Assembly: GCA_020351855.1 (NCBI GenBank) | Contig: CP070670.1 | Coordinates: forward strand, 2,515,550 to 2,571,485 | Reading direction: 5' to 3' | From: Gemmatimonadota bacterium | GTDB lineage: Bacteria; Gemmatimonadota; Gemmatimonadetes; Palauibacterales; Palauibacteraceae | DNA: 55,936 bases | Shown here: positions 10,649-39,555 of the stretch, piece after piece | How positions within the stretch are numbered: the first letter of the stretch is position 1 | How the letters are laid out: each line of letters begins with the position of its first letter | Notes under the pieces: model-generated | The model's input: only the letters and a program-made list of their open reading frames with translations | Told to the model about the DNA's origin: nothing | The model's database searches: none | Program-made: the position numbers and the translations under genes

Positions 10649-11887
10649 TTAGAGGGCGAGCCGCCCCCGGACGGCCTCGAGCGTCGGCGGGATGGCCCTC
10701 GGCAGACGAACGGCCTGGCCTGCGGCGGGAATGTCCTTCAGCCCGCTCCCGGTGACGAGGAGCACGATCCGTTCATCCCGCCCTACGAGCCCCTCTCGGA
10801 GTGCGGCATGCAGCCCGGCCAGGGCGGCCGCGCCCGCCGGCTCGGCGAAGACGCCCGTCAGCCGGGCCAGCGCGGGGATCGCCTCGAGGATGGCGTCGTC
10901 CGAGACCGCCACGGCGCCACCGCCGGACTCCCGGATCCGCCGCAGGCAGAGGAGCGCGTTGCGTGGGCTCTCCACGGTCAGGCTGTCGGCCACGCTGGCC
11001 GCGCCGCGGTGGGGCGTGACCTCGTTTGCCCCCGCGCGGAACGCGGTGACGAGCGCTGCCGATCCCTCGGGCTGGACGGCGACAAGGCGCGGGGGGCGGG
11101 CGAGCAGTCCGGCCCGCTGCAGGTCCAGGAAGCCCTTTGCCACCCCGGCCAGAATCGCCCCATCCCCCGTCGGCACGAGCACGACATCGGGGGCCTCGGG
11201 CGACATGGCGGCGGCGATCTCGAGGGCCGCCGTCTTCTTGCCCTCGATGGTGAAGGGGTTGAGCGCCGTGTTGCGGTTGTACCACCCGAACGTCTCGCAA
11301 GCGGTCCGGCAGAGCTCGAAGGCTTCGTCGTAGCTCCCCTCCACGACCACGACCTCCGCGCCGCAGCAGAGCACCTGGATGAGCTTGGCCTCCGGGGCGG
11401 ACGCGGGAACGAAGACGATCGTCTCCACGGCCGCCGCCGCGCCCACGGCGGCCAGGGCGGCCGCAGCATTGCCCGTGGAGGCGGTAGCGACCGTTCCGAG
11501 TCCGTACTCACGGGCCTTCGCGACGACCAGCAGGGAAGCGCGGTCCTTCGTCGATCCGCTCGGGTTGCGCGTGTCATCCTTCACCCAGAGCCGCGGCAGC
11601 CCCAGGCTCTCGCGCAGCCCCGGCACCGGCAGGAGCGGCGTGCCGCCCACCTCCAGCCGCGCCAACGCGGCCGGATCTTCGAACGGCAAGAAGGCGGCGA
11701 GGAAGTCGGGGTCGGAGGGGCGTGAGGGCGGCCAGGCAAGGGGCAGGGCGTCCAGCTCGACCTCCAGGACGCCGCGGGTGGCCCCTCCCGGTTCCTGAAG
11801 CGCAGCGCAGGCGGCACATACCAGGCGGCCGCGCTCCTCGGGGTACTCCCGGGCACACTCGGTGCAGCGGAAGCGGAAGGCGGTCAC
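10649..11887 (-). CDS. Threonine synthase-like PLP enzyme in the purine cluster
   Basis: 412 residues, fold-type II PLP enzyme. An N-terminal zinc-ribbon-like segment has Cys8, Cys11, Cys24 and Cys27. The PLP lysine is Lys114 in NPSGSTKDRAS, and the glycine loop TASTGNAAAALAA follows. GTG start after GGAGGT. The overall pattern is threonine synthase of the archaeal/plant-like class. Its location, 43 bases behind the carbamoyltransferase and no other threonine biosynthesis gene nearby, suggests that it works on a product of purine ring breakdown, perhaps an amino acid such as 2,3-diaminopropionate or serine. That is inference; ordinary threonine synthase remains possible. Confidence 0.75.
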   Translation of the reverse strand: MTAFRFRCTECAREYPEERGRLVCAACAALQEPGGATRGVLEVELDALPLAWPPSRPSDPDFLAAFLPFEDPAALARLEVGGTPLLPVPGLRESLGLPRLWVKDDTRNPSGSTKDRASLLVVAKAREYGLGTVATASTGNAAAALAAVGAAAAVETIVFVPASAPEAKLIQVLCCGAEVVVVEGSYDEAFELCRTACETFGWYNRNTALNPFTIEGKKTAALEIAAAMSPEAPDVVLVPTGDGAILAGVAKGFLDLQRAGLLARPPRLVAVQPEGSAALVTAFRAGANEVTPHRGAASVADSLTVESPRNALLCLRRIRESGGGAVAVSDDAILEAIPALARLTGVFAEPAGAAALAGLHAALREGLVGRDERIVLLVTGSGLKDIPAAGQAVRLPRAIPPTLEAVRGRLAL

Positions 11888-11930
11888 CCGGCAGACCTCC
11901 GGATCGGGTCGGACGGGCTCATCCCCAAAC

Positions 11931-12923
11931 TCACATCACGAGCGCCATGAGCGCCTTCTGGACATGGAGCCGGTTCTCGGCCTCGTCGTACACGGCCGAG
12001 TGGGGGCCGTCGATTACCTCGTCCGTCACCTCGCGCCCCCGGTCCGCCGGCAGCGGGTGCATGTAGACGAGGTGCTCCTTGCCGAGCGCGATGCGCTCGG
12101 CATCGCAGCGCCACCGCGGGTACTTTTCGATCAGCCGGAGTCCCTCCGCGACGTCCCGCGTGTGAACGAGCGGGCCCCACGACTTCGGCACGACGACGTC
12201 CGCGTCCTCGAAGGCGTCTTCGAACCTATGGGAGATCTGGAAGCGGCTGCCGGCCGCCTCCGCGTTCGCCCGCGCCTGCTCCTCGATCTCCGGCAGGAGG
12301 CGGAACTCCGGCGGATAGGCGAGGGTCACGTCGAGCCCCAACCGCGGCATCATCAGAATCAGGCTCTGCGGCACCGAGAGAGGGCGCACGTAGTTGGGGG
12401 CGCTGGTCCAGGCCACGCCGAGCTTCAGTCCCCGCGTGCTCGGGAACCGTTCCCGGATCGTCATGTAGTCGGCCAGCACCTGACAGGGATGATAGACGTC
12501 GTCCTGCATGCTGAGCACGGGGATGTCGGCGTGCTCGGCGACCTCACGAATGTACGCGTTCCCCTCGCCGTACGTGCAATGGCGAATCGCGATCCCGTCC
12601 CCGTAGCGGGAGAGCACCTTGGCGGTGTCCTTCGCGTTCTCGCCGTGGCTGATCTGCATCCTGTCCGGCGAGAGGTAGATTCCGTGGCCGCCCAGCTGGG
12701 TGATGCCGGTTTCGAAGGAGTTGCGTGTGCGCGTCGAGGCATCGAAGAAGATCATGTAGAGCGTCTTCGCCGGGAGCAGGTGGGTCGGCTCGGCCTCGCG
12801 TCTGGCCTTCTTGAGCTGACCGGCGAGGATGAAGAGCAGCTCGAGCTCCTCGAGCGACCAGTCCTGGGTCGAGATGAAGTCGCGACCGCGCAGGCGATCC
12901 GGGACGACGACCGAGGGGTTCAC
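11931..12923 (-). CDS. ygeW: YgeW-like carbamoyltransferase
   Basis: 330 residues of the aspartate/ornithine carbamoyltransferase superfamily. The carbamoyl-phosphate motif is DASTRTRNSF (Ser63-Arg67), the second is HPCQVLAD (145-152), and HPLPADRG lies near the C-terminus. DASTRTR and the cluster context match YgeW of the E. coli urate/purine gene set, whose true second substrate is not settled; it may run in the direction that releases carbamoyl phosphate from a carbamoylated intermediate. The GTG start overlaps the TGA of the M20 peptidase gene (GTGA). No carbamate kinase gene is visible in this cluster. Confidence 0.85.
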   Translation of the reverse strand: MNPSVVVPDRLRGRDFISTQDWSLEELELLFILAGQLKKARREAEPTHLLPAKTLYMIFFDASTRTRNSFETGITQLGGHGIYLSPDRMQISHGENAKDTAKVLSRYGDGIAIRHCTYGEGNAYIREVAEHADIPVLSMQDDVYHPCQVLADYMTIRERFPSTRGLKLGVAWTSAPNYVRPLSVPQSLILMMPRLGLDVTLAYPPEFRLLPEIEEQARANAEAAGSRFQISHRFEDAFEDADVVVPKSWGPLVHTRDVAEGLRLIEKYPRWRCDAERIALGKEHLVYMHPLPADRGREVTDEVIDGPHSAVYDEAENRLHVQKALMALVM

Positions 12924-14140
12924 GGAAGGAGCTCCTCCTTCCTCCGGGAGAGGGACGCCGGAATGAGGCTGTAGACAGCGGTGGCGCGGACGAGGTCCTC
13001 GATGGCCACCCATTCGTCCGTCGTATGGGCCAGCTCCTCGAGTCCGGGCGCGAAGCCTACCGTGGGGATGGCATGACGGCCCATCGTGGCGACCCCGTTG
13101 GTCGAGAAGGACCAGCGGGAGATCGAGGGCGGCGAGCCGAGCACCGCCTGCACCGCCTCCGCGACGGCCCGCACTAGGGGATGATCCTCCGGGAGAACCC
13201 AGCTCGGAAAGACCTTCTCCTGGCGGGCGCGCTGGCCGCGCCAGCTCACCTCGTCGTACTCGAGCAGCGACACGATGGCGTCCCCGATGTGGGGCAGCGA
13301 TCGAAGCTCCTCCAGGGCACCCTCCGGGGACTCCCCGGCGGTCAGGCGGCGGTCGATGTAGACCCGTGCGCTGTCCGGCACCGCGTTCAGGGACACGGTC
13401 GTACACTCGATGTTCGAGGCGACCACCGTGCCCTTTCCGAGGAAAGCGTCTCGCGGAAGCCGCTCGTTCAGCTGTTCCAGATCGAGGATGATGGGCGCGA
13501 CCCTGTACAGCGCGTTGACGCCCTCTTCGGGATGGGCGGCATGCGAGGAACGTCCCCGGGTCGTGATCGTGGCCTCCACACGGCCTCTCTGGCCGCGGTA
13601 GACGCCGAGGTCGGTGGGCTCGCCGAGGATCACGACGTCCGGCCGGATGCCTTCGTTCTCGATGAGGTGCAGCAGGCAGTAGCCGTCACAGTCCTCCTCC
13701 ATGACGGATGCCGTCAGATGGATCGTGACGTCATCGGGCAGTCCCTCCGCCTCGCGCGCTACTGCCATGCCGTATGCCATGCAGGCGATCGCCGGAAGCT
13801 CGTCGACGGCGCCACGGCCCCAGATCCTGCCCGCCTCCAGCTTGCCCTCGAACGGATCGTGCCTCCAGGCGGCGGGATCGCCGATCCCCACGCAGTCGAC
13901 ATGACCGTCCATGAGGATCGTCAGGGGCCCGTCCCCCAGGGTGGCCACGACGTTCCCGAGGCGATCGATGCGGACGTCGTCGAAGCCCAGCCGCTCGTAC
14001 TCGGTCCTCACCCTCTCGCAGCGCTCGCCCTCCCGGCAGCTCTCCGCCGGGATCGCGATCATGTCGCGCAGGAAGCGGACGATCCTCGCTTCGAGCGCCC
14101 GCGCCGCGTCCAAGGCTGCCCTTCCGTCTCCGGTCATCAT
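12920..14140 (-). CDS. ygeY: YgeY-like M20 family metallohydrolase
   Basis: 406 residues, M20 peptidase/deacylase family. Metal ligands: His80 and Asp82 in MDGHVDCVG, Asp113 in GRGAVDE, Glu148-Glu149 in VMEED, Glu in LGEPTD, and a late His in HTTDEW. A dimerisation domain separates the two halves of the catalytic domain. The ATG overlaps the TGA of the upstream PLP enzyme (ATGA). By cluster position it corresponds to YgeY, which is thought to hydrolyse an amide or carbamoyl bond of a ring-opened purine product. Relatives include ArgE and DapE, but neither arginine nor lysine biosynthesis genes are near. Confidence 0.85.
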   Translation of the reverse strand: MMTGDGRAALDAARALEARIVRFLRDMIAIPAESCREGERCERVRTEYERLGFDDVRIDRLGNVVATLGDGPLTILMDGHVDCVGIGDPAAWRHDPFEGKLEAGRIWGRGAVDELPAIACMAYGMAVAREAEGLPDDVTIHLTASVMEEDCDGYCLLHLIENEGIRPDVVILGEPTDLGVYRGQRGRVEATITTRGRSSHAAHPEEGVNALYRVAPIILDLEQLNERLPRDAFLGKGTVVASNIECTTVSLNAVPDSARVYIDRRLTAGESPEGALEELRSLPHIGDAIVSLLEYDEVSWRGQRARQEKVFPSWVLPEDHPLVRAVAEAVQAVLGSPPSISRWSFSTNGVATMGRHAIPTVGFAPGLEELAHTTDEWVAIEDLVRATAVYSLIPASLSRRKEELLP

Positions 14141-15639
14141 GGGCTCAGGCCCGTCTCCGCGTTGAAGGCCTCGATCGCCGCGTCCCACTCGGGCAGCCGC
14201 GCCGACAGCGCACTCCAGAATCCGGGGTCCCAGAGGGCGTCCAGCTCCTCCACCGTCTTCCCCTGCTGCTCCACCCAGGTGAAGTACTTGAGGTTGTGGA
14301 TGGCCTTCCGGTCGGTGAACCGAAGCTCCCGCAGGTGGTCGGTCGTCGCGCCCAGGAGATAGCGCTCCAGCTCTACGGCCGCCTGTCGCTCCGTGTACTC
14401 GCCGTGTGCCGTCCGGAGCTCGCTCAGCCGGGTGCGGTACAGGTCGATGGAGTCCGTGAACGGGGTGAGGACGATGTCGTGTTCGTCCAGCTCGTAGTAT
14501 CGGGCCGTCTTGATCGCTGCCAGCAGGTTGCAGACGCTGGAGATGCCGAGTAGCGGAAGCCGCTCGATCAGCTCGGCCGCGACGCCGCGGGCGGTCAGCA
14601 CCGGCCGGGCGGCGGGCTCGTTGAAGAGTCTCAGGAGGCGCAGCGTCGCCTCGTCGTCGATCGCGGTCACCAGATCGGTATTTCGGACATTGTGGATCCA
14701 GGGGACGTGCTTGTCACCGATCCCCTCGATGCGGTGGCTCCCAAACCCGGCCATCAGCAGGGTCGGGCACTGCAGCGCCTCGGCGGCCGTGATGCGGCAG
14801 GAGGGATGACGACCCTTAAGCCAGTCTCCGGCGCCCAAGGTGCCCGCCGATCCGGTCGCTCCGACCCAGGCCGCGCATCGATCATCCTCCGACGCGATCT
14901 CTTCGAAGACGGCTCCCGCGGCGGGCCCGGTGACGCCATAATGCCAGAGATAGTTACCGAATTCCGCGAACTGGTTGAAGATGATCGCGTCGGGCCGGGT
15001 CCGGCGGATCTCCCAGCAGGCATCGAAGATCTCCTTGACGTTGCTCTCGCCGCCGGGCGTGCGGATGATCTCGGCGCCGACCCGCTCCAGCCAGTCGAAC
15101 CGCTCACGGCTCATCCCCTCGGGAAGGATCGCCACGGCCCGGCATCCGAGCAGGGCGCTGTCAAACGCGCCTCCGCGGCAGTAGTTGCCGGTCGACGGAC
15201 ATACGGCGCGGTGCACCGTGGGATCGAATGCTCCGGTCACGAGGCGGGGCACCAGGCAGCCGAAGGCGGCCCCCACCTTGTGGGCCCCGGTGGGAAAGTG
15301 CGTGCCGACCAGGCCCACGATGCGGGCCCGCACGCCCGTCAGCGCGGTCGGTAGTTCGAGGTGGTTGATCCGGCCGAAGCCGCCGGTCGCCGGGTCGTTG
15401 TGCCAGGTGATGCGGAAGAGGTTCAGCGGGTCGACCGCCTGCATGTCGACGGCGGCGATCCTTCGCTTCAGGTCCGCGTCGAGGGCGTTCGGGTCGCGCA
15501 TCTGGGCAAGCGTCGGGATCAGGACGCCCCGCTCGCGACAACGGTCGATCGCCCTCGACCGCGCATCCCCATCGACAACTGATGTCAGGTGAATCGATCT
15601 ATCTCCTTGCCTATCCAATGAATGGCGTCGACCAATCAA
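14137..15639 (-). CDS. Fold-type II PLP enzyme of unknown specificity (YgeX position)
   Basis: Up to 500 residues. The PLP lysine is Lys121 (counted from the ATG at 15639) in PTGAHKVGAAFG, followed by PSTGNYCRGGAFDSALLG, a substrate loop, and GATGSAGTLGAG for the phosphate. It is cysteine-synthase-like but longer, with a C-terminal extension of about 150 residues. It occupies the place of YgeX (2,3-diaminopropionate ammonia-lyase) yet lacks the YgeX sequence pattern. The start is uncertain: a strong AAGGAG at 15603-15608 lies inside the open frame just after the SsnA stop, 8 bases before an in-frame ATT at 15594, so the true protein may start near there rather than at the ATG that overlaps ssnA by 29 bases. 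Its TGA overlaps ygeY. Confidence 0.85.
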   Translation of the reverse strand: MIGRRHSLDRQGDRSIHLTSVVDGDARSRAIDRCRERGVLIPTLAQMRDPNALDADLKRRIAAVDMQAVDPLNLFRITWHNDPATGGFGRINHLELPTALTGVRARIVGLVGTHFPTGAHKVGAAFGCLVPRLVTGAFDPTVHRAVCPSTGNYCRGGAFDSALLGCRAVAILPEGMSRERFDWLERVGAEIIRTPGGESNVKEIFDACWEIRRTRPDAIIFNQFAEFGNYLWHYGVTGPAAGAVFEEIASEDDRCAAWVGATGSAGTLGAGDWLKGRHPSCRITAAEALQCPTLLMAGFGSHRIEGIGDKHVPWIHNVRNTDLVTAIDDEATLRLLRLFNEPAARPVLTARGVAAELIERLPLLGISSVCNLLAAIKTARYYELDEHDIVLTPFTDSIDLYRTRLSELRTAHGEYTERQAAVELERYLLGATTDHLRELRFTDRKAIHNLKYFTWVEQQGKTVEELDALWDPGFWSALSARLPEWDAAIEAFNAETGLSP

Positions 15640-16969
15640 GGGCGTAAAAGCGATCCCACAAGGCCGGCGAGACCTCCCGGGCCCGGGCGGCCAGGCGCTC
15701 GGGATCCAGGGTCGTGAGGCAGAAGTCCTCCAGCAAGACCGTGCCGCGCGCGATCGTGTGTCGGACCGGCGCCTCGCTGGCCCCGTACACGAGCTGCGCG
15801 AACGCGTTGTCGTCCTTGATCGGCGTGGGTGGGGGAGAGTCGAGCGCGATGAGGTCGGCGGGAGCGCCCTCCGCGAGCTCCCCCAGCCGGGGCTCGTCGA
15901 AGAAGCGGCGCGCGATGGTCAGGTTCGCGGGCAGGAGCGCCGGCACGCCCTCGAAGCCCGCCGACGGATCTCCTGTCGCTCCACGGTGGCTCAGGAAGGC
16001 GAAGCGAAGCGACCGCAGCATCGAGGACGACATCCCATCCGTGCCGAGACCGATCGTGCATCCGAAGCCGGCAGTTCGCGCGACATCGAGACGACCGACC
16101 CCGTTGTTCGCGTTCGATTCGGGGTTGTGGATCAGCACGGATCCGGCTTCGGCGACGCGCTCGTAGTGGCGGTCCTCCAGGTGAATGGCGTGCGCCAGCA
16201 GCGCCTGTTCGTCGAGGAGGCCGAATCGGTCGAGCCGCTCGATCGGTCCGAGGCCGAAAGCGTCGTGGGAGGCCTCGACGTCTACCGGATCCTCGGCCAC
16301 ATGAATGTGACAGCCGGCGCCGGCCGGTCTGCGGTCGGCGACCTGGGCCAGCGTCTCGTCGCGTAGCGTGAAGCTGGCGTGAAGTCCCACCACGCCACGG
16401 ATGCGCCGATCCTGCTGTCTCGCTTGCAGGAAGCGGAGGTTCTCCCCCAGCCCGGCCCACGCCCCGGCGCTGCCGTTGCGGTCCGAGATCTCGTAGCAGA
16501 GCAGGGCCGAGATGCCGCCTTCCTCCACAGCCTCGGCGATCCAGTCGAGACTACCCTCGATGCATGACGGAGAGGCGTGGTGGTCGAATACGGTCGTGCA
16601 CCCCTGCCGGATGCACTCGGCCACCGATAGCTGCGCGCAGATCCGGATGCACTCCGGGTCCAGCGCCCGGTCGAGCCGCCACCAGAGGCGCTGCAGCACC
16701 TCGGGAAAGCTGGCCATCGGGACGGCGGGATCCAGTCCCCGGGCAAGGGCGGAATAGAAATGGTGGTGGGTGTTCACGAGGCCCGGCAGGATCAGGCCGC
16801 CTCCCGCATCCAGGTAGCGGGCTCCGCGGTGTCTCGCCATCAGGCTGGCCTCGGGGCCGGCTTCCAGGATCCGCTCCCCCCGCCACGCCACCGCGCCCTG
16901 CGGCACCACCTGCGGCGCCGGTCCGCCGGTCACCAGGGTCCCGTTTCCCAGAACCTGCGTCTCGGTCAT
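15611..16969 (-). CDS. ssnA: SsnA-like amidohydrolase
   Basis: 452 residues, metal-dependent amidohydrolase superfamily, cytosine/guanine deaminase-like branch. Metal-site segments: NTHHHFYSALARG (His68-70), HASFTLRDE, HIHVAED, LLAHAIHLED and GTDGMSSSM. E. coli SsnA (442 residues) belongs to the urate-degradation gene set and is thought to hydrolyse a ring or amidine bond of a purine-derived intermediate. The ATG overlaps the TGA of the hydantoinase-like gene (ATGA), so it is translated as part of the same operon. A simple guanine or aminopurine deaminase role is an alternative. Confidence 0.9.
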   Translation of the reverse strand: MTETQVLGNGTLVTGGPAPQVVPQGAVAWRGERILEAGPEASLMARHRGARYLDAGGGLILPGLVNTHHHFYSALARGLDPAVPMASFPEVLQRLWWRLDRALDPECIRICAQLSVAECIRQGCTTVFDHHASPSCIEGSLDWIAEAVEEGGISALLCYEISDRNGSAGAWAGLGENLRFLQARQQDRRIRGVVGLHASFTLRDETLAQVADRRPAGAGCHIHVAEDPVDVEASHDAFGLGPIERLDRFGLLDEQALLAHAIHLEDRHYERVAEAGSVLIHNPESNANNGVGRLDVARTAGFGCTIGLGTDGMSSSMLRSLRFAFLSHRGATGDPSAGFEGVPALLPANLTIARRFFDEPRLGELAEGAPADLIALDSPPPTPIKDDNAFAQLVYGASEAPVRHTIARGTVLLEDFCLTTLDPERLAARAREVSPALWDRFYALDWSTPFIG

Positions 16970-18369
16970 GACGTTGTCCGCGATTCCCGCTCGATCCGCC
17001 CGCCGAATCCCGGCTTTCCGAAGCGCTCCGATCCATCGGATGACCGGGAGTAGACGGGCTCGGCGCGAACGTAGGTCTGGCAGATGCGGCCCTTGAGCTC
17101 GTAGCCCTCGAGCGGCGTGTAGCGATTTAGGTTGTGGAGGCCCTCCGCGCGCACCGTCCAGCGCTCGTCCGGCTCCAGTACGGCCAGGTCGGCGTCGAGT
17201 CCCGGTGCGAGCCGACCCTTGCGGTGCTCGAGGCCGAAAAAGCGCGCCGGCTCGGAGGCAGTGACCTCGGTCAGCCGCTCCAGCGTGATCCGGCCGCGGC
17301 CCACGCCTTCCGACAGCAGGTAGGGCAGGGACAGCTCGACGCCCGGCACCCCGCCGTAGTCGGTCCAGATGGACCCGGTGCGCTTCTCCTCCGGCCACTG
17401 TCCGGCTGCGTGATCGGTGGCCACGAACAGGAGCTCGCCGGACGCCAGCCCTTTCCAGAGCCGCTCCCGGTCGGCCGGGTCCTTGACCACCGGGGCCGTC
17501 TTGAGCAGGGCGCCCTGCTCGCGGAAATCCGACAGAGTGAACTGGAGGAAATGCGGGCAGGTCTCGGCCGACATGGGCAGTCCTTCGTCGCGCGCCGCGC
17601 TCACGATGTCGAGTGCACCTCCGGAAGCGACGTGCACGATGTGCACCCGGGCGCCCGTCTCCCGGCAGATCTCCCGCATCGTTTCCACGGCCGCAATCTC
17701 CGCCGCTGCGGGGCGCGAGGCGGCATAATCCGCCGGTTCGTCGCGCCCCTCCGCCCTCAGCCGGCCCGTGAGCTCGCGCACCATCTCCCGGTCCTCGGCG
17801 TGCACGCCCACGGGCACGCCGTGCCGGGCGACCTCCTCCACGGCGTCCCGCAGCTGAGGTCGGGAGAGGTCCCGGAAGCTGTCCATCCCGGAGAGCATGT
17901 ACACCTTGATCGCCGCCACGCCCGCCGCGACGATCTCCGCGAGGTCTCGTCGCCACTCCGGGCTGGCCAGCGCGTTGTGCGACAGTCCGCCCCACAGCAT
18001 GTAGTCCACGTGCGCCTTCGCCTCGATGACCGCCAGCTTGGCCTGGAGGTTGTGCAGCGATGTGACCGGCGGCAGGGAGGTGCAGGGCATGTCTACGACA
18101 CAGGTGACGCCGCCGGCGGCGGCGGCCCGGGAGCCGGTCTCGAACGTCTCGCGATGCGTGAAGCCCGGGTCGTCGAAGTGGACGTGGCCGTCGATGGCCC
18201 CCGGCAGAACGAGTCGTCCCCCCAGGTCGAGGGACTCGACGTCCTCCTCGGCCGGCTCCGCGGCAGGGGAGGTGATCTCCTGGATGCGCCCGTCCACCGC
18301 GAGGATCGTGGCAGGCCTGGTCTCGCTCCCACCGGCAGGGATCCGGAGGTTCGTGAAGCGCCGTCTCAT
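16966..18369 (-). CDS. hyuA: HyuA/allantoinase-like cyclic amidohydrolase
   Basis: 467 residues of the dihydropyrimidinase/allantoinase/hydantoinase group. The metal site is complete: DGHVHFDDPG (His62, His64), the carboxylatable Lys155 in AAIKVYM, His190 in GVHAED, HIVHVAS and ATDHAAG. GHVHFDDPGFTHRE is closest to the allantoinase motif I know. The reaction should be hydrolytic opening of a five- or six-membered cyclic amide made from purine breakdown. The ATG overlaps the YgfK TGA. In E. coli the matching gene is hyuA in the ygeW-xdhD region. Confidence 0.85.
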   Translation of the reverse strand: MRRRFTNLRIPAGGSETRPATILAVDGRIQEITSPAAEPAEEDVESLDLGGRLVLPGAIDGHVHFDDPGFTHRETFETGSRAAAAGGVTCVVDMPCTSLPPVTSLHNLQAKLAVIEAKAHVDYMLWGGLSHNALASPEWRRDLAEIVAAGVAAIKVYMLSGMDSFRDLSRPQLRDAVEEVARHGVPVGVHAEDREMVRELTGRLRAEGRDEPADYAASRPAAAEIAAVETMREICRETGARVHIVHVASGGALDIVSAARDEGLPMSAETCPHFLQFTLSDFREQGALLKTAPVVKDPADRERLWKGLASGELLFVATDHAAGQWPEEKRTGSIWTDYGGVPGVELSLPYLLSEGVGRGRITLERLTEVTASEPARFFGLEHRKGRLAPGLDADLAVLEPDERWTVRAEGLHNLNRYTPLEGYELKGRICQTYVRAEPVYSRSSDGSERFGKPGFGGRIERESRTTS

Positions 18370-20345
18370 GACGGTGCCGGGTTCACCGGGTTGGGGTCGG
18401 GCGAGCGGAAGATGGCATACCATACGGCCCTGGCGCGCCACACGTCGAGCGGTCCCAGCCCGGCGTCCTCGAAGCGATCCTCCCGCTCGGTGTCGATCCG
18501 GTACTCGCGTCCTCCGAGCCGCGCCAGCAGCAAGCCGTCTTCCCGGCAGAACCCATCCAGGGCGGATGCTTCGTAGGCCTCCCGCGTGAGGAAGACCATC
18601 TCCTTCTCCACTAACGGAGCGCCGGCTTCGGGGCAGTAGACCTCGCAGTTCGAACACTCGTTGCAGGCGCCCTCGAAGACCGCGAGTTGGTGGGCTTCCC
18701 GCACCGCGAAGCCCTCGCCGACGGCCGGTTCGACCTCGTAGGCGAAGATCGCGTCGTTGGGGCATGCCTGGATGCAGAGATCGCAGCTGATGCAATCGTG
18801 AAGGCCGAGGACGCTGTCGATCTGGCGTGGCGAGCGCGAGTTGTGCAGGGCGTGGTAGCGTGAATCTCCCGCCACCGCCGGGACGATGTCGCCCCCGTTC
18901 AGGCGGCCGGCCACCCGGCTGGCGTGGAGCAGCAGAGCGTCGCCGTCCAGCCGGGCCTCCTCGGCGGCCCGGCGCAGGGCACGCGGCGCTTCGTTCGGCG
19001 ACTGAGCGGCGGTGTGGAGCAGCTTCTCCCTCGTCCGGGACGGCAGGGCGGTGTGGCCGGGGAAGGTCGCCAGCGCCTCCTCGATCGCCCGCGCGGCGTG
19101 TCCGCGCGCGGCCAGCACGTAGGCTTCGCGTGAATCGACGCCGCACCGTTCCAGCGCCCGCGAGAGCGCCCTCAGATAGCCGGGCAGGCGGCCGAATCCC
19201 CCCTGCTTCAGGAGGTCCGTGCAGGTGGTGACCGGGACCATCCCGCAGGCCACCGCGTCGGGAAAGTTCCGGACGTCGATGCCGGCGGAGAAGGAGACGG
19301 GCAACTCGAATCCCAGGTCTTCCCGCACCCGCTGCATCAGGTTCATCGCGAGCACGTGCAGGGGCGCGCCCGACACATACATGTACGGATCGGTCTGCGT
19401 CGGGAAGAGCGTGGGGTCGTTCTCCACCACGAGCGTGTTCGTGAACTTCGCCCCCACGATCGATCCGAGCCGCTCGGCCGCGGACCGGAGGCGACGCAGG
19501 ATGTCGAGCCCCTCCTGGTACTGCAGGTCCGTGTCGAACGCCGCGCGTCGCAGCCTCAGGTGCCGGTATCCGAGGCGGTCGATCAGGAGCTCCCGCACCC
19601 GCTCAAAGCCGAGCAGCGTGGGGTTCAGCTTGATGATCGTGTGGACGCCGACCTCCTCCAGCAGGTAGAGGCAGATCGCCTCGATCTGGTCGGCCGGGCA
19701 CCCGTGGAAGGTGGAGAGGGTGACAGTGTCCGAGATCGGCGTGGGCGGCTCGATGTCGGCGAACGGCTCGAGGTCCCCCGTCAGCTCCGACCGCAGGGTC
19801 CCGTACACGCGGCCCGGGTCCTTCAGCGTCTCGATGAACCCGGTGACCTTGCGCGTGCGGATCCCCTCGAGGTCATAGCCCACGCTGATGTCGAAGACGG
19901 TGTGCAGGCCGCGGTCGGAGGGCAGGAGGCCGAAGGCGCGCGTGGCCTTCAGGATCTCGATCAGATAGGCGGCCTTCGCGTACTCCAGCACGGACTGTTC
20001 GACGCGCAGCTCCTGAGACCACTCGACGTTGTAGCCGATGTTCGGGACGTGGATGCAAGGTCGAGGGATGTGCAGGCGGTCGTTCGCCTGGACGGTCTTG
20101 AGCTCGATGATGCGTCCCCCCGCCAGCCACGCCAGCACGATGTTCTGGGCAAGCTGCGTGTGGGGCCCGGCGGCCGGCCCCACCGGGTTGGAAGCGCGAT
20201 GACCGAAGTGAAAGGCCGAAAGGTCGATACCTTCGTCGGCCCGCCACCACTTTCGCACCGGCAGGTCGAAGATCGCGCCGCGACGTTCGGCTTCCCGCCG
20301 CATCCGGCGCACGAGGTCGGGGAAGGGGATCGGTTGCAGCTCCAT
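18366..20345 (-). CDS. ygfK: YgfK-like iron-sulfur oxidoreductase, short form
   Basis: 659 residues against about 1,030 for E. coli YgfK. The N-terminal dihydroorotate dehydrogenase-like domain is strongly conserved: NPVGPAAGPHTQLAQNIV, ELKTVQ, LSTFHGCPADQIEAIC and KLNPTLLG. The C-terminus keeps the two-cluster ferredoxin domain, CISCDLCIQACPNDAI (about 517-532) and CNECSNCEVYCPEAG (about 560-575). What is missing is the central GltD-like module with its two Rossmann GxGxxG motifs that binds FAD and NAD(P)H; the join between the two domains is a short helical stretch. YgfK is usually called a putative selenate reductase but sits in urate-degradation clusters. It ends in ATGA overlap with hyuA. 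Confidence 0.9.
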   Translation of the reverse strand: MELQPIPFPDLVRRMRREAERRGAIFDLPVRKWWRADEGIDLSAFHFGHRASNPVGPAAGPHTQLAQNIVLAWLAGGRIIELKTVQANDRLHIPRPCIHVPNIGYNVEWSQELRVEQSVLEYAKAAYLIEILKATRAFGLLPSDRGLHTVFDISVGYDLEGIRTRKVTGFIETLKDPGRVYGTLRSELTGDLEPFADIEPPTPISDTVTLSTFHGCPADQIEAICLYLLEEVGVHTIIKLNPTLLGFERVRELLIDRLGYRHLRLRRAAFDTDLQYQEGLDILRRLRSAAERLGSIVGAKFTNTLVVENDPTLFPTQTDPYMYVSGAPLHVLAMNLMQRVREDLGFELPVSFSAGIDVRNFPDAVACGMVPVTTCTDLLKQGGFGRLPGYLRALSRALERCGVDSREAYVLAARGHAARAIEEALATFPGHTALPSRTREKLLHTAAQSPNEAPRALRRAAEEARLDGDALLLHASRVAGRLNGGDIVPAVAGDSRYHALHNSRSPRQIDSVLGLHDCISCDLCIQACPNDAIFAYEVEPAVGEGFAVREAHQLAVFEGACNECSNCEVYCPEAGAPLVEKEMVFLTREAYEASALDGFCREDGLLLARLGGREYRIDTEREDRFEDAGLGPLDVWRARAVWYAIFRSPDPNPVNPAPS

Positions 20346-20394
20346 CAGCGGACGCCGCCGAGGGCCGCTGCAGCGGCTGGGTCGATCATCGCGT

Positions 20395-23064
20395 CTATCC
20401 TCCGGGCCGCCTTGCCTTCGGGACGGAGGGCACGGCCGCCGGAGCGTCGCTCATCGGCAGGCTGAACCGGCGCTTCCCGTCATACGCGAAGAGGGCGCCC
20501 GCCACCGCACCGGCCGTGGGCACGAGGCCGATCTCGCCCACTCCCTTCGAGCCGTACCCCCCTACCTCGTCCGGGACCTCGATGAGGATCACGTCGATCG
20601 GCGGCGTGTCCTTCGCCTTGAGGATGCCGAGGTCGCGAAGGAGCAGGGAGTCGGGATGGCCGCCCGTGCATGGAAGGTCCTCCGACAGCGCGTAGCCGAG
20701 GCCCATGTGCACGGAGCCCTCGATCTGGCCGCTGCAGAGGAGAGGGTTGATCGCCCGGCCCACGTCATGCGCGGCGACGACGCGCGCCAGCCGCCCCCGC
20801 TCATCCAGGATGACGACCTGCGTCGCGTAGCTGAACGTCATGTGCGTGACCGGATCCGCGTCCCTCTCTCCCGGCTTCGTGGTGAAGTCGCACACGTACT
20901 CGCCGAGGTACTCCTGCCCGGCAAGCTCCCCGAGCGGCGCCCCCTGCAGATCCGCAGCCAGCTTTCGGGCCGCGATCCGGCCGGCTTCCGTGAGAAGCGC
21001 GGTGGCGCGAGAGGCGGTGGTCATTCCGCATGGCACCCTGGGATCGCTGCTCGTGCGGACGGACATGCACCCGGGCGGGAGGGCCGTCTCTTCCTGGACC
21101 ACCTGCCGGAGCACCGTATACAGCCCCTGTCCCATCTCGGTGTAGCCCGTGAGGATCTCTAGGCGCCCGCCCTCCAGCACCCGCAGCAGAAGGCGTCCGC
21201 TGTCGTCCATCCCGTTTCCGATCCCGGTGTTCTTGATGCCGCAACCGATCCCCGCGTAGGTGGCACCCTTGTACACGTCCCGCACGGCCTCCAGCGTCTG
21301 CCGGATGCCGCAGCTCTCGGTCAGCCGCTGCCCCGTGGCGAACCGATCGCCCGGCCCCAGGATGTTCCGCTCGCGGATGTCGTAGCCATCGACCCCCACC
21401 CGCTCCGCCAGGAGATCCATCATCCCCTCGATGGCAAAGGCGGCCTGGTTGGCGCCGAAGCCACGCATGGCCCCGCAGGGCGGGTTGTTGGTGTAGACGG
21501 TCTTGGCCTCGACCGTCACGTTCGGCACCCGGTACGGGCCGCAGGAGTGCCCGGCCGCCCGCTCGAGCACCTTCATTCCGACCGACGCGTAAGCGCCCGT
21601 ATCGCCCACGATGCGGGCGCGTACAGCGGTGAGCCGGCCCTCCTCGTCGGCGCCCACGACGTAGTCGAGCGTGATCGGGTGCCGCTTGGGGTGCAGCCGG
21701 ATCGACTGCTCGCGGGTCAGCACGGTCCGGACGGGCCGACCGGTCACCCGAGCCGCCAGGGCGGTCTGCGCCTGGACCGACAGATCCTCCTTGCCGCCGA
21801 ACGCACCACCGTTCGCCACGAGCACGACCTCGATGGCGGTCGGCGGCAGGTCCAGCACGGCGGCGATCTGAGCCTGGTCGTCGTGCACCCCCTGGCCCTG
21901 GGTATACACCTTGACGGCGTCGTCCCCGACCGGCTCTGCCAGGCAGGCCTCCGGCTCCAGAAAGGCATGCTCGACACGCTGCGTCGTGAACCGCTGCTCC
22001 ACGACGTGGGCTGCCTTGGCGAGGGCCGACTCGACATCGCCGCGGGTGAAGGAGCACACCTCAAGCAGGTTGCCACCCTCGTGCACCGGCGGCGCCGAGG
22101 CCTCGAGTGCCTCGAACGGATCGGTCACCGGCTCGAGCACCTCGTACTCGACCGACTCCTCGAGCGCTTTCGCCGCCCCGCGGGCACGGAACGGCGTGTC
22201 CGCGAGGACGAGCGCCAGCAGATCGCCCACGCAGCGGGTGAGCTCGCCCTCCGCCACGAACACGGGCCAGTCCGGCCGGATCAACCCGACGAAGCGCTGG
22301 CCCGGCACGTCGCGGGCCGTGATCACGCGCTCCACACCTGGAAGGGCGAGGGCGACGCCGGGATCGATCCTGAGCACTCGGGCCCGCGGATGTTGGCTCA
22401 GAACGGCGGCGCCGTGGAGCATTCCCTCGGCCAGCATGTCGGCGACGTACGGCTTCTCGCCCAGCGTGAGTGCACGCCCCCGGAAGCGGGGGCTGCTGCT
22501 TCCGATGCCGGTCGTGGCAGCCGGAGAGGCGCGGGTGAGGCCGAAGCGCTCTCCGAAGAACAGGCTGTTCCGGGGCGCGCTTCCCGACCGCGTGGCCCCG
22601 TCATCCCAGGCCTCGCCAGCGGTCAGGATGGCGTCCACGATGCGATGGTAGCCCGTGCAGCGGCAAAGGTGGCCGGAGATAGAACGGGCCACGGCCTGGG
22701 CGTCGGGTTCGGGACCGTGACGGAGGAGCGAACAGGCGCGGACGGCGAGGCCGGGCGTGCAGTAGCCGCACTGCAGCGCGCCCTCGCGAACGAAGGCGTC
22801 AGCGATGAGAGCGCGCTGCTCCACCGGCAGGCCCTCGAGGGTGGTGACGGCGCGCCCGGCGACCGACGCGGGGTCTCTGAGGCAGGAGAGGGCGGCCCGG
22901 CCTTCGATCAGGACGGTGCAGCAGCCGCAATAGCCCTGAGGGGCGCAGCCGTCCTTGGGCGAGGTGAGGCCGCACACGTCGCGCAGCACTTCGAGCAGAT
23001 GCATCCCCGCCTCGTACTCGATGCTCGTGTGTTCGCCGTTCAGCGTGAACTCGAGGTGCGGCAT
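20395..23064 (-). CDS. xdhD: XdhD-like fused molybdenum hydroxylase ([2Fe-2S] plus Mo domains)
   Basis: 889 residues from the ATG at 23064, which follows GGAAGG. An N-terminal ferredoxin-like domain has Cys40, Cys46, Cys48/49 (GCAPQGYCGCC); the second cluster domain has LQCGYCTPG and HLCRCTGY at about 100-150. The molybdopterin part starts near 210 and shows GGAFGGKED, GAMRGFGANQ, ACGMTTASR-like TASRAT, and GVGEIG with the catalytic Glu near the C-terminus. The fusion of FeS and Mo parts without FAD matches XdhD of E. coli, thought to hydroxylate or reduce purines such as urate/xanthine. No FAD subunit (YgfM) gene is adjacent, so its electron partner is probably YgfK or a ferredoxin. First gene of the cluster. 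Confidence 0.92.
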   Translation of the reverse strand: MPHLEFTLNGEHTSIEYEAGMHLLEVLRDVCGLTSPKDGCAPQGYCGCCTVLIEGRAALSCLRDPASVAGRAVTTLEGLPVEQRALIADAFVREGALQCGYCTPGLAVRACSLLRHGPEPDAQAVARSISGHLCRCTGYHRIVDAILTAGEAWDDGATRSGSAPRNSLFFGERFGLTRASPAATTGIGSSSPRFRGRALTLGEKPYVADMLAEGMLHGAAVLSQHPRARVLRIDPGVALALPGVERVITARDVPGQRFVGLIRPDWPVFVAEGELTRCVGDLLALVLADTPFRARGAAKALEESVEYEVLEPVTDPFEALEASAPPVHEGGNLLEVCSFTRGDVESALAKAAHVVEQRFTTQRVEHAFLEPEACLAEPVGDDAVKVYTQGQGVHDDQAQIAAVLDLPPTAIEVVLVANGGAFGGKEDLSVQAQTALAARVTGRPVRTVLTREQSIRLHPKRHPITLDYVVGADEEGRLTAVRARIVGDTGAYASVGMKVLERAAGHSCGPYRVPNVTVEAKTVYTNNPPCGAMRGFGANQAAFAIEGMMDLLAERVGVDGYDIRERNILGPGDRFATGQRLTESCGIRQTLEAVRDVYKGATYAGIGCGIKNTGIGNGMDDSGRLLLRVLEGGRLEILTGYTEMGQGLYTVLRQVVQEETALPPGCMSVRTSSDPRVPCGMTTASRATALLTEAGRIAARKLAADLQGAPLGELAGQEYLGEYVCDFTTKPGERDADPVTHMTFSYATQVVILDERGRLARVVAAHDVGRAINPLLCSGQIEGSVHMGLGYALSEDLPCTGGHPDSLLLRDLGILKAKDTPPIDVILIEVPDEVGGYGSKGVGEIGLVPTAGAVAGALFAYDGKRRFSLPMSDAPAAVPSVPKARRPGG

Positions 23065-25551: not shown

Positions 25552-27708
25552 ATGACGGCAGCCGAGCTCAGAATACCGTACCTGCCCGAGCGCATCGAGG
25601 GACTTCGCGAGCTGGCGATGAACCTCTCCTGGCGCTGGCACAGACGTGCCTGGAAGCTGTTCGAGGAGATCGATCCGCCCGTCTGGGCGGACACCCGGTA
25701 CAACCCGATCGATCTGCTGCGGCGGACCGGCCCGGCGCGACTCGCTGAATGCGCGAACCATCCGGCGTTCCTCGAGCTCTATGAGGCCGCGCTGCGTGAC
25801 GCTCGTCAGGAGCTGGCCACCGCGGACACGTGGTTCCACAATCGGTTCCAACTCTCGGACGATCGTCCGGTGGCCTACTTCTGCGCCGAGTTCGGGGTGC
25901 ACCACTCCGTGCCGATCTACTCGGGTGGCCTCGGTGTCCTGGCAGGGGATCACTGCAAGTCGGCCTCGGACCTGGGCGTGCCGCTGATCGCGGTCGGGCT
26001 GCTGTACTCCAAGGGCTACTTCGACCAGATCATCACCCTGGATGGCTGGCAGAAAGACTCCGACGCGACGCTCAACCCCGACATCACCCCGCTCGAGAGG
26101 GTGATCGGCCGCGATGGCAGCGTACCGCTGGCGTCGGTCACGACCTCGGGGCGCGAGGTCAGGATCGCGGCCTGGAAGCTCCGAGTCGGGCGTGTGCCCA
26201 TCTACCTGCTCGACACCGGGCTGGAGGAGAACGACCCCCTCGACCGCGAGCTGACGAGCAAGCTGTACGGGGAGGGTCTCGAGCTGCGACTCAAACAGGA
26301 GTGGATTCTGGGTGTCGGCGGGGTCCGCGTGCTCCGGGCCCTCGGGATCGACCCGGGCGCGTGGCACGCCAACGAGGGACACGCGACCTTCATGCTCATC
26401 GAGCGCCTTCGCGAGTTGCATGCGGAGGGGCTGAAGCTCGAGGATGCGATCCAGCAGGTTCGGGCCCGTAGCATCTTCACCACTCACACCCCGGTTCCGG
26501 CGGGGCACGACAACTTCTCGCTCGAGCTGATCGAGGACTGTACCGGAGATTACTGGGAGGGGCTGGGCGTGAATCGGGAGGCCTTTCTTCGCCTGGGCTT
26601 CAACCCCGACACGAACCATGGCTCGTTCCACATGACGGCGGCGGCGATCCGTCTTTCCGGTAGGGTCAACGCCGTGTCGAAGCGGCATGGCCAGGAGACG
26701 AGATACATGTGGCGCAAGCTGTGGCCGGGGAGAGATCCGTCCGCGGTGCCGATCGGCGAGATCACGAACGGCGTTCATCTCGCCAGCTGGATGTCCCATG
26801 CGATCCTCGATCTCCTTGACGGGCGCCTGGGTGATGATTGGAAGCTGCGCCGCGATGACCCGACGATGTGGGATCAGGTGCTCGATCTGGACGATGCCGC
26901 CCTGTGGGAGGTCCACGTCCAGCTGAAGCGGCTGCTCATCGGCTTCATTCGCGAGGATGCCCGGAGGCGCTGGCGGGACCAGTGGCGCGAGGCCGTGCAC
27001 CTGGTGGGTGCCGGGACCCTACTGAGCCCGCAGCCGCTGACGATCGGCTTCGCCCGCCGCTTCGCTACCTACAAGAGAGCCGACCTGCTGTTTCGGGATG
27101 AGGAACGGCTGCGGCGGCTTCTCACGGACGTGCGGCGGCCCGTTCAGGTCATCTTCGCCGGCAAGGCCCATCCCTCGGACGGGCCGGCGAAGGAGGTCTT
27201 GCAGCGGGTCTACTCGTTCACCCGGGAGCCTCGCTTCGAGGGCCGCGTGGCCTTCCTTGAAGACTACGACCTGCTGGTGGCGGCGCGTCTCGTTCGAGGG
27301 GTCGATCTGTGGCTCAACGTCCCGCGCCCCCCTCTGGAGGCCTCGGGAACGAGCGGGATGAAGGCGGCGCTGAACGCCGTCCCCCAGTTGGGGACACTGG
27401 ATGGCTGGTGGGCCGAGGGGTTCGACGGGGAGAACGGATGGGCGCTGCCGCTATCCGAGAAGGGTGCGGATGCCGATGCCGCCGATGCGGAGGCGCTGTT
27501 CGATGTTCTGGAGGGCGAGATCGTCCCGCTGTACTACGATCGTGATATGCGGGGCATCCCCCTGGGCTGGGTCCGTAAAATGAAGCAGGCGCTGCGAGTA
27601 GCGGGATCCCGGTTCACGACGTGGCGCATGGTCGGCGACTACTGCACGGAGTACTACGCTCCGGCTCTGGAGGGCCGGTTGGATGGAGATGACCCCCCGA
27701 CCGGTTAG
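25552..27708 (+). CDS. glgP: Alpha-glucan phosphorylase, short form
   Basis: 718 residues, glycosyltransferase family 35, the short-form class lacking the long N-terminal extension of the E. coli enzyme. Motifs: AYFCAEFGVHHSVPIYSGGLG, WHANEGHATF, EITNGVHLASW, FARRFATYKR, and the PLP lysine Lys604 in SGTSGMKAALN. It removes glucose from alpha-1,4-glucan ends as glucose 1-phosphate in the cytoplasm. The ATG has no clear purine-rich site before it. Its stop overlaps the stop of the convergent glgB gene, placing phosphorylase and branching enzyme tail to tail. Confidence 0.93.
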   Translation: MTAAELRIPYLPERIEGLRELAMNLSWRWHRRAWKLFEEIDPPVWADTRYNPIDLLRRTGPARLAECANHPAFLELYEAALRDARQELATADTWFHNRFQLSDDRPVAYFCAEFGVHHSVPIYSGGLGVLAGDHCKSASDLGVPLIAVGLLYSKGYFDQIITLDGWQKDSDATLNPDITPLERVIGRDGSVPLASVTTSGREVRIAAWKLRVGRVPIYLLDTGLEENDPLDRELTSKLYGEGLELRLKQEWILGVGGVRVLRALGIDPGAWHANEGHATFMLIERLRELHAEGLKLEDAIQQVRARSIFTTHTPVPAGHDNFSLELIEDCTGDYWEGLGVNREAFLRLGFNPDTNHGSFHMTAAAIRLSGRVNAVSKRHGQETRYMWRKLWPGRDPSAVPIGEITNGVHLASWMSHAILDLLDGRLGDDWKLRRDDPTMWDQVLDLDDAALWEVHVQLKRLLIGFIREDARRRWRDQWREAVHLVGAGTLLSPQPLTIGFARRFATYKRADLLFRDEERLRRLLTDVRRPVQVIFAGKAHPSDGPAKEVLQRVYSFTREPRFEGRVAFLEDYDLLVAARLVRGVDLWLNVPRPPLEASGTSGMKAALNAVPQLGTLDGWWAEGFDGENGWALPLSEKGADADAADAEALFDVLEGEIVPLYYDRDMRGIPLGWVRKMKQALRVAGSRFTTWRMVGDYCTEYYAPALEGRLDGDDPPTG

Positions 27709-29930: not shown

Positions 29931-30029
29931 GGCGGATCTGTCCTCAACCGTCAGATCGCTGCGATCGTTGGCGAACCGATTCGTGGCGCCTAGCTTCCTG
30001 TGGATGACGCATCAGGGATCCTCCGCAGA

Positions 30030-34929: not shown

Positions 34930-36072
34930 ATGGACCATTTCGACTATATCCTCGTAGGCGGCGGCCTGCAGAACGGCCTCATCGTGCGGGCCCTCCGGGC
35001 GCGCCGTCCCGCGGCACGCATCCTCCTCATCGAGCGGGCCGCCAGGCTGGGCGGCAACCACACCTGGTGCTTCCACGAGGAGGATGTGGAAGCGCGTTCC
35101 CGCGAATGGCTGGAGGCCCTCGTCGTTCATCGCTGGCCCGGCTACGATGTGCGCTTCCCGAGGCTGCGACGAACCATCGAAGGGGTATACTCGGCCGTGA
35201 CGAGCGAGCGGCTGCATGCCGTCGTCGGGGCCGAGGTCCAGGACCACGCCGCCTCCAGGCTGCTGCTGGAGAGCGAAGTGTCGGACGTCGAAGCGGGTCG
35301 CGTGACGTTACGCTCCGGCGAAACGGTGGAGGGAGGCGTGGTGGTGGACGGGCGGGGACCGCTGCCGCCGGCGAACGGCAGCAGGGCAGGGTACCAGAAG
35401 TTCCTCGGGCTGGAGCTGCAGTTGGCCGATGCGCACGGTCTGGAGCGGCCCCTCCTGATGGACGCGACGGTGGACCAGTCGGAGGGTTTCAGGTTCTTTT
35501 ACGTGCTCCCCCTCGCTCCGGCGGGGCTCCTGGTCGAGGACACGTACTTTCACCAGTCACCCGCTCTCGAGCCCGACGCCTTGCGCAGGGGGATCCTATC
35601 TTATGCGGCCTCGCGCGGGTGGGAGGTCCGTCGGATCGTGCGGGAGGAAGTGGGGGTGCTGCCCATGCCGTGGTCCGGGCGCTTCGTTCCACCGCGCCGC
35701 GGCCCGCTGGCCGCGGGCTACCGAGGTGGCTGGTTTCACCCCGGCACCGGCTATTCCTTTCCGGTGGCCGTGCGGCTGGCGGAGTTCATCGCGGGCCGGC
35801 CGCCGAGCGCGCTGTTCGGTCCGCAGCTTACGCGCTTCGGCCGCCGTCACGCTCGACAGGTGCTGTTCACGCACTTCCTGAACCGGTTTCTTTTCCGTTG
35901 GTATCCCCCCGCTGCCCGTCACTCCATCTTCGAGCGCTTTTACCGCCTGCCGGCGGCGACGATTGGCGATTTCTATGCCCTCCGTCTAACTTCGGCCGAC
36001 CGTTTTCGACTCTTGTCTGGGCGGCCGCCGAGCGGTCTGTCCCTGCGCTACCGCCTGGGAGGAAAAGATTGA
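34930..36072 (+). CDS. crtY: Lycopene beta-cyclase, CrtY type
   Basis: 380 residues of the FAD-binding CrtY lycopene cyclase family. The dinucleotide motif is LVGGGLQNGLIV at residues 8-19, followed by the family's GGNHTWCFHEEDV block near residue 40; GFRFFYVLPLAP and a late GYRGGWFHPGTGYSF segment are also typical. It turns lycopene ends into beta-ionone rings, yielding beta-carotene. It is the first gene of a seven-gene plus-strand carotenoid operon, with crtE 3 bases downstream. Confidence 0.92.
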   Translation: MDHFDYILVGGGLQNGLIVRALRARRPAARILLIERAARLGGNHTWCFHEEDVEARSREWLEALVVHRWPGYDVRFPRLRRTIEGVYSAVTSERLHAVVGAEVQDHAASRLLLESEVSDVEAGRVTLRSGETVEGGVVVDGRGPLPPANGSRAGYQKFLGLELQLADAHGLERPLLMDATVDQSEGFRFFYVLPLAPAGLLVEDTYFHQSPALEPDALRRGILSYAASRGWEVRRIVREEVGVLPMPWSGRFVPPRRGPLAAGYRGGWFHPGTGYSFPVAVRLAEFIAGRPPSALFGPQLTRFGRRHARQVLFTHFLNRFLFRWYPPAARHSIFERFYRLPAATIGDFYALRLTSADRFRLLSGRPPSGLSLRYRLGGKD

Positions 36073-36075
36073 GCG

Positions 36076-39549: not shown

Positions 39550-39555
39550 GCAGTG

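What the first reader, a model, noticed from the sequence alone, without database searches (positions are those of the whole stretch)
10649..23064. Urate/purine degradation cluster in an apparently non-enteric diderm
Order on the minus strand: xdhD, ygfK, hyuA, ssnA, PLP enzyme, ygeY, ygeW, threonine synthase-like gene, nearly all joined by 4-base overlaps. The E. coli set ygeX, ygeY, ygeW, ygfK, ssnA, hyuA, xdhD has been tied to anaerobic urate breakdown in gut bacteria. Finding six of the seven types tightly packed in a soil- or sediment-like genome suggests that the pathway is wider and may run with other electron carriers.
Basis: partly seen in the sequence, partly recalled or inferred. 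Interest (0 to 1): 0.7.

Follow-up and report, generated by a model that had tools for sequence, protein, structure and literature searches.

The report
Environmental variant of reductive urate-degradation operon
A soil- or sediment-type Gemmatimonadota bacterium carries an eight-gene operon that looks like the recently solved oxygen-free uric-acid breakdown pathway of gut bacteria, but it lacks the NAD(P)H-binding parts of both reductases and has a different last enzyme, and related versions turn up in many environmental phyla.

Summary
Eight minus-strand genes at 10649-23064 form one operon: xdhD, ygfK, hyuA, ssnA, a CysK-like PLP enzyme, ygeY, a ygeW-like carbamoyltransferase and a threonine-synthase-like gene. 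Four of seven junctions are 4-base overlaps, so "nearly all" is overstated. Gene order is conserved in Gemmatimonadota relatives. In one relative (G175) the operon is flanked by guanine deaminase, a second xanthine-dehydrogenase gene and an NCS2 purine permease, which ties it to purines.

Best reading: a variant of the reductive urate pathway. Differences from E. coli: YgfK lacks the whole FAD/NAD(P)H half, and XdhD is the clostridial type with no YgfM, so both probably take electrons from ferredoxin. YgeX is absent from nine cluster-bearing genomes; a CysK/CBS-fold PLP enzyme stands in its place. HyuA is allantoinase-like, and YgeW is a remote, shorter relative. No uricase or OHCU decarboxylase was found in those nine genomes.

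Short YgfK occurs in 79 of the 80 nearest named loci, spread over more than ten phyla, 44 of them with SsnA. I found no paper describing this environmental, FAD-less, YgeX-less form. New variant of a known kind. No activity has been tested.

The parts
20395..23064 (-). xdhD-type molybdenum hydroxylase, [2Fe-2S] domain fused to Mo subunit, 889 aa, clostridial 'Se-dependent XDH' type, no FAD subunit; proposed urate -> yanthine reductase
   Evidence: TIGR03311 880 bits > cut-off 830; Fer2_2, Ald_Xan_dh_C, MoCoBD_1/2; C-terminal catalytic Glu present; 25% to E. coli XdhD
18366..20345 (-). short ygfK, 659 aa: FMN TIM-barrel (DHODH/DPD-like) + two [4Fe-4S] clusters, no FAD/NAD(P)H domain; proposed yanthine reductase
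   Evidence: TIGR03315 partial; alignment with the 1032-aa E. coli protein shows the whole middle region missing; eight Cys invariant in 36 relatives; model pLDDT 89, best PDB folds DPD and DHODH
16966..18369 (-). hyuA-like cyclic amidohydrolase, allantoinase type, 467 aa; proposed ring opening of ureidomethyl-hydantoin
   Evidence: TIGR03178 387 > 358; 31% to E. coli HyuA
15611..16969 (-). ssnA aminohydrolase, 452 aa; proposed opening of reduced yanthine
   Evidence: NF005540 440 bits vs cut-off 444, next best family 174; 34% to E. coli SsnA
14137..15582 (-). CysK/CBS-fold PLP enzyme, about 481 aa (start uncertain); proposed stand-in for YgeX (diaminopropionate ammonia-lyase)
   Evidence: PALP; invariant PLP lysine in GxHKV-type motif and STGN loop; model pLDDT 93.8, best PDB folds CysK/CBS/SbnA; not YgeX family (NF006058 21 bits vs 276)
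12920..14140 (-). ygeY M20 hydrolase; proposed ureido-group hydrolase
   Evidence: TIGR03526 444 > 321.5; NF009555 455 > 321; 46% to E. coli YgeY
11931..12923 (-). short ygeW-like carbamoyltransferase, 330 aa; proposed phosphorolysis of the other ureido group to carbamoyl phosphate
   Evidence: OTCace domains; PKSW and H-LPAD motifs shared with YgeW, lacks its long insertions
10649..11887 (-). threonine-synthase-like PLP enzyme with N-terminal zinc-ribbon-like Cys residues, 412 aa; role unknown, accessory to the pathway
   Evidence: PRK08197 278 bits vs cut-off 303; in 15 of 53 short-ygfK loci of 12 kb or more

Best explanation
The operon encodes a reductive (oxygen-independent) urate/purine degradation pathway, in a variant that takes electrons from a low-potential carrier (ferredoxin) rather than NAD(P)H and ends with a non-orthologous PLP lyase. 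Steps: (1) XdhD reduces urate to yanthine; (2) short YgfK reduces yanthine at an FMN site fed through its two [4Fe-4S] clusters; (3) SsnA opens the pyrimidine ring, pulling step 2 forward; (4) allantoinase-type HyuA opens ureidomethyl-hydantoin (allantoin plus one CH2) to 2,3-diureidopropionate; (5) the YgeW-like enzyme and YgeY remove the two ureido groups, with carbamoyl phosphate going to a carbamate kinase encoded elsewhere; (6) the CysK-fold PLP enzyme eliminates ammonia from 2,3-diaminopropionate to give pyruvate. Shown here: gene content, operon conservation, domain losses, absence of YgeX and uricase. Inferred: all substrates, direction, ferredoxin use, and the role of the PLP enzyme.
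For: Steps 1-6 are established for E. coli, C. difficile and C. sporogenes enzymes (PMC12507026, PMC12990295). Family assignments. Conserved operon in the class. G175 (L054) has an xdhA-type gene, xdhC/coxI, guanine deaminase, xdhD, ygfK, ssnA, plp, ygeY, ygeW, thrC-like and NCS2 permease on one strand; L060 adds yqeA and guanine deaminase next to the cluster. Carbamate kinase in 8 of 9 genomes including the window's; NCS2 permeases in the window's genome. No uricase or OHCU decarboxylase in 9 genomes. YgfK fold matches the substrate half of dihydropyrimidine dehydrogenase, which does the analogous chemistry. No FAD/NAD(P)H half in 79 of 80 loci. PLP enzyme tracks SsnA: 22 of 36 loci with ssnA against 0 of 17 without (Fisher 1e-5, not corrected for kinship); no YgeX in nine genomes (best 45 bits vs 532); in Acidobacteriota loci L093, L101, L104, L137 otherwise near-complete E. 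coli-like sets carry the PLP enzyme and no YgeX.
Against: No activity data. YgeW and HyuA assignments are remote; XdhD is 25% identical to E. coli XdhD, and its Glu606-equivalent cannot be aligned securely. The PLP enzyme lacks the YgeX Asp120 (Thr131 instead) and also occurs without a nearby urate cluster in four genomes, so it may have another substrate. Fourteen loci with ssnA have none of plp, thrC-like or ygeX nearby. No ferredoxin partner gene is linked. The carbamate kinase is not in the operon.
Confidence: 0.7

Rival explanations
1. The operon degrades another N-heterocycle (xanthine in the oxidative direction, a pyrimidine or a hydantoin), using XdhD as an ordinary hydroxylase, YgfK as a dihydropyrimidine-dehydrogenase analogue and HyuA as hydantoinase.
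For: YgfK fold resembles DPD; HyuA is an allantoinase/hydantoinase-type enzyme; XdhD is named xanthine dehydrogenase in NCBIfam.
Against: SsnA, YgeY and YgfK belong to the families linked to the reductive urate route, and purine genes (guanine deaminase, second XDH, NCS2 permease) flank the operon in relatives.
Confidence: 0.14
2. The operon degrades urate, but its end differs: the PLP enzyme and/or the threonine-synthase-like enzyme act on a ureido-amino acid (such as albizziin) or convert diaminopropionate to another product, so the route is not simply YgeX-like.
For: CysK/CBS/SbnA-type fold; Thr in place of YgeX Asp120; two PLP genes in the operon.
Against: Loci with the PLP enzyme often still carry YgeY/YgeW or two other carbamoyl hydrolases, implying that both ureido groups are removed first.
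Confidence: 0.2
3. The set is a selenium/selenate metabolism locus, as old annotation ('putative selenate reductase YgfK', 'selenium metabolism protein SsnA') suggests.
For: TIGR names; selD in 9 of 9 cluster-bearing genomes.
Against: The E. coli enzymes are now shown to act on urate intermediates (PMC12507026). Selenium may serve as an XDH cofactor only (PMC2276186); selD also carries an in-frame TGA, pointing to a general selenocysteine system.
Confidence: 0.03

Closest known systems
E. coli reductive urate cluster (xdhD-ygfM, ygfK, ssnA, hyuA, ygeW, ygeY, ygeX, yqeA)
   Same: six of seven catalytic types present and packed in one operon; carbamate kinase elsewhere in the genome
   Different: YgfK lacks the FAD/NAD(P)H half; no ygfM in the operon; YgeX replaced by a CysK-fold PLP enzyme plus a threonine-synthase-like gene; YgeW short and remote; XdhD 25% identical; HyuA allantoinase-like
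C. difficile / C. sporogenes uricolytic clusters (XdhD/XdhAC, UacX, UacY)
   Same: XdhD without a FAD subunit; dearomatizing reductase without a FAD domain, for which ferredoxin has been proposed (PMC12507026)
   Different: here the FAD-less reductase is a YgfK (TIGR03315 N-terminal part), not a UacX (PF01180); a carbamoyltransferase instead of UacY; no YgeX
Reductive pyrimidine pathway (DPD/PydA, PydB, PydC)
   Same: FMN barrel fold and dearomatization followed by ring hydrolysis
   Different: gene families SsnA, YgeY and XdhD belong to the purine route
CysK/CBS/SbnA-type PLP enzymes
   Same: fold and catalytic lysine; alpha-aminoacrylate chemistry
   Different: about 480 aa with a long C-terminal extension and 59 invariant columns of its own family; far below all cysteine synthase cut-offs

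Membership tests
Reductive urate degradation gene cluster (E. coli type) | SsnA marker gene | tested here: met
   NF005540 440 bits (cut-off 444), next best family 174; marginally below the curated cut-off
Reductive urate degradation gene cluster (E. coli type) | XdhD-type Mo hydroxylase next to ssnA | tested here: met
   TIGR03311 above cut-off; clostridial rather than E. coli type
Reductive urate degradation gene cluster (E. coli type) | YgfK with FAD/NAD(P)H domain | tested here: not met
   domain absent; only the FMN and Fe-S parts remain
Reductive urate degradation gene cluster (E. coli type) | YgfM FAD subunit with XdhD | tested here: not met
   no ygfM in the operon or in the aligned Gemmatimonadota operons; whole genome not searched for it
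Reductive urate degradation gene cluster (E. coli type) | YgeY and YgeW | tested here: inconclusive
   YgeY above cut-off; YgeW-like protein below the YgeW cut-off, 35% identical
Reductive urate degradation gene cluster (E. coli type) | YgeX diaminopropionate ammonia-lyase | tested here: not met
   none in nine genomes, best 45 bits vs 532
Reductive urate degradation gene cluster (E. coli type) | degrades urate via yanthine without oxygen | not testable with these tools
   needs enzyme assays
Oxidative urate pathway | uricase and OHCU decarboxylase | tested here: not met
   PF01014 and PF09349 absent in nine genomes, controls positive; PuuD/HpxO not searched in these genomes
Selenium-dependent Mo hydroxylase | SelD in the genome | tested here: met
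   TIGR00476 365 bits, in-frame TGA
Selenium-dependent Mo hydroxylase | YqeB/YqeC accessory proteins | not tested

The most novel reading that the evidence does not exclude
The FAD-less, ferredoxin-driven and YgeX-less form is the widespread environmental form of the reductive urate pathway, present in more than ten phyla of soil, sediment and water bacteria, with a previously unrecognised CysK-fold 2,3-diaminopropionate lyase and interchangeable ureido-removing modules (YgeW/YgeY or HyuC plus a nitrilase-type hydrolase).
Probability: 0.5. Interest if true: 0.65.

Novelty: new variant of a known kind. Interest (0 to 1): 0.52.

Why it matters
The reductive urate pathway has been treated mainly as a gut-microbe trait relevant to gout. 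A coherent variant in Gemmatimonadota, Acidobacteriota, Planctomycetota, Myxococcota and others would make it a general route for purine nitrogen in low-oxygen soils and sediments. It predicts a different reductant and a new lyase family that annotation and PF00291-based surveys would have counted as 'YgeX'. It also offers a possible NAD(P)H-independent enzyme set for uricolytic engineering. Cultured carriers (Pleomorphomonas, Propionivibrio dicarboxylicus) make the electron-donor question testable.

Tried and rejected
PDB search by sequence with YgfK hit only ferredoxin domains; the fold search was needed. An all-against-all ORF clustering was spoiled by shadow ORFs at high GC and was redone with codon scoring. 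Looked for a linked FAD/NAD(P)H partner of short YgfK: only one stand-alone GltD-like gene (L133) and one fused long form (L126) in 80 loci, so a conserved linked partner was rejected. Looked for the E. coli XdhD Glu606 as a yanthine-specificity mark: that loop aligns poorly and varies among close relatives, so it was not used. Strict exclusion of YgeX by the PLP enzyme in loci cannot be claimed: 22 and 4 of 36, with one locus carrying both. Promoter and terminator scans at chance level. No GC shift over the operon, so no sign of recent import. Literature searches for a Gemmatimonadota or environmental description found none in the held library; subscription papers and preprints are not held.
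Full report
OBSERVATION. The window is part of a 2.96 Mb single-contig genome. Eight minus-strand ORFs at 10649-23064 are real and belong to the named types. Starts and junctions were recomputed: xdhD starts at 23064; 4-base overlaps join ygfK/hyuA, hyuA/ssnA, plp/ygeY and ygeY/ygeW; the other three junctions are gaps of 49, about 31 and 43 bases. So it is a tight operon, slightly less tight than described. Composition does not change across it.

HOST. The same-genus genome G069 has its cluster on a 176,398-base contig. The contig of the same length in the named collection (L058) is CAMYMV010000008.1, an uncultured Gemmatimonadales MAG.

CONSERVATION. SsnA above a strict threshold is in 15 of 295 genomes of the class. 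Where contigs are long enough, the order xdhD-ygfK-hyuA-ssnA-plp-ygeY-ygeW-thrC-like is kept in same-genus, same-family and same-class genomes, with hyuA missing from the operon in G175 and in the G050 and G212 fragments. In G175 (L054) the same strand carries an xdhA-type gene, xdhC/coxI, guanine deaminase, the cluster and an NCS2 purine permease; in L060 a carbamate kinase (43% to YqeA) and guanine deaminase follow. This ties the operon to purines independently of the family names.

ENZYMES. XdhD matches TIGR03311 (the 'selenium-dependent xanthine dehydrogenase' family) above cut-off and is 25% identical to E. coli XdhD. C. sporogenes XdhAC and E. coli XdhD-YgfM reduce urate to yanthine (PMC12990295, PMC12507026); I did not compare the window protein with XdhAC directly. 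YgfK is 659 aa against 1032 in E. coli; alignment shows that the missing part is the FAD/NAD(P)H half. The eight cysteines of two [4Fe-4S] clusters are invariant in 36 relatives. The model (pLDDT 89) matches dihydropyrimidine dehydrogenase and dihydroorotate dehydrogenase. SsnA and YgeY are close to their families. HyuA passes the allantoinase cut-off; since ureidomethyl-hydantoin is allantoin with one extra CH2 (established chemistry), an allantoinase-like enzyme is a reasonable opener (inference). The YgeW-like protein lacks the insertions of E. coli YgeW but shares its PKSW and H-LPAD motifs; the genome has three other carbamoyltransferase-family genes, one of them a strong ornithine-carbamoyltransferase-type match.

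THE MISSING YgeX. No YgeX exists in nine cluster-bearing genomes. The 481-aa PLP enzyme has the PLP lysine and phosphate-loop motifs invariant in 32 relatives and a CysK/CBS/SbnA-like fold. Among 53 loci of at least 12 kb around short ygfK, 36 have ssnA; 22 of those have the PLP enzyme and 4 have YgeX (one has both), while none of the 17 loci without ssnA has the PLP enzyme. In Acidobacteriota loci L093, L101, L104 and L137 it accompanies XdhD (with YgfM, except that L104 is truncated), YgeY, YgeW-like, YqeA and SsnA with no YgeX. In YgeX, Asp120 sits in the TDGN loop; the PLP enzyme has Thr131 in an STGN loop. From memory, Asp120 is tied to use of the D-isomer in YgeX, so the stereochemistry here may differ. 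The PLP enzyme also occurs in four genomes without a nearby urate cluster (G077, G172, G196, G284), so its role is inferred, not shown.

DISTRIBUTION. A named-genome scan with a YgfK alignment matched at least 585 relatives; the best 80 were kept. Seventy-nine have short YgfK (588-747 aa where complete) and only L126 has the fused long form. These 80 were ranked by similarity to a short form, so the share of short forms overall is not measured. They come from Acidobacteriota, Planctomycetota, Myxococcota, Proteobacteria, KSB1, Calditrichota, Marinimicrobia, Elusimicrobia, Sumerlaeota, Bdellovibrionota and others (by record title). Li et al. list SsnA in Pseudomonadota, Bacillota, Chloroflexota, Actinomycetota, Spirochaetota and Elusimicrobiota. 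In Pleomorphomonas (L102, L107) and in several other loci, a HyuC-type carbamoylase and a nitrilase-type hydrolase stand where YgeW/YgeY would be; this is inferred from position and family.

ALTERNATIVES. Uricase and OHCU decarboxylase are absent from the nine genomes, so the best-known oxidative route is unlikely in them; PuuD and HpxO were not searched there. Selenium: selD is present in all nine and carries an in-frame TGA in eight, so a selenium-dependent XDH is possible but not shown. Other N-heterocycles as substrate remain the main rival.

ELECTRONS. With neither YgfM nor the YgfK FAD half, ferredoxin is the simplest donor, as Li et al. proposed for C. difficile UacX (PMC12507026). No linked ferredoxin or reductase gene was found. 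This step is inference.

VERDICT. A conserved, environmental variant of the reductive urate pathway: known in kind, new in anatomy and range. Confidence 0.7 that it degrades urate reductively; lower (about 0.55) that the PLP enzyme is the diaminopropionate lyase.

Noticed in passing
G000:C1:1116219-1117136 (own genome, outside window): selD with one in-frame TGA, also in seven of eight cluster-bearing relatives: SelD is probably itself a selenoprotein, so this Gemmatimonadota lineage makes selenocysteine.
   Followed up: no
L085 about 17528; L092 5895-7196: A PuuD-like (membrane urate oxidase, identified by eye) gene lies near short ygfK in a Rhodospirillales and a betaproteobacterial MAG: oxidative and reductive urate genes side by side.
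   Followed up: no
L102 and L107 (Pleomorphomonas), L098, L100, L124, L132: HyuC-type carbamoylase plus nitrilase-type hydrolase appear where YgeW/YgeY are missing, an apparent alternative ureido-removal module.
   Followed up: partly
L149 6891-9629: A PLP-enzyme relative (61%) outside any urate cluster sits next to a gene with a weak arginine-deiminase match, hinting at another role for the family.
   Followed up: partly
window 34930-42747: Carotenoid-type gene run: lycopene cyclase, polyprenyl synthetase, phytoene synthase, UbiE-like methyltransferase, amine-oxidase/desaturase family, Rieske-DUF5914.
   Followed up: no
window 25552-33553: Glycogen metabolism run: DUF3417 phosphorylase, GlgB, starch synthase, GH57-DUF3536.
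   Followed up: no
G000:C1:2604528-2604792 and 2320616-2320746: 16S rRNA model matches only as two separate fragments about 284 kb apart in a single-contig genome; assembly gap, masking or split gene.
   Followed up: no
window 2730-5393: Beta-eliminating-lyase (tryptophanase-type) domain in the C-terminal half of a long ORF.
   Followed up: no
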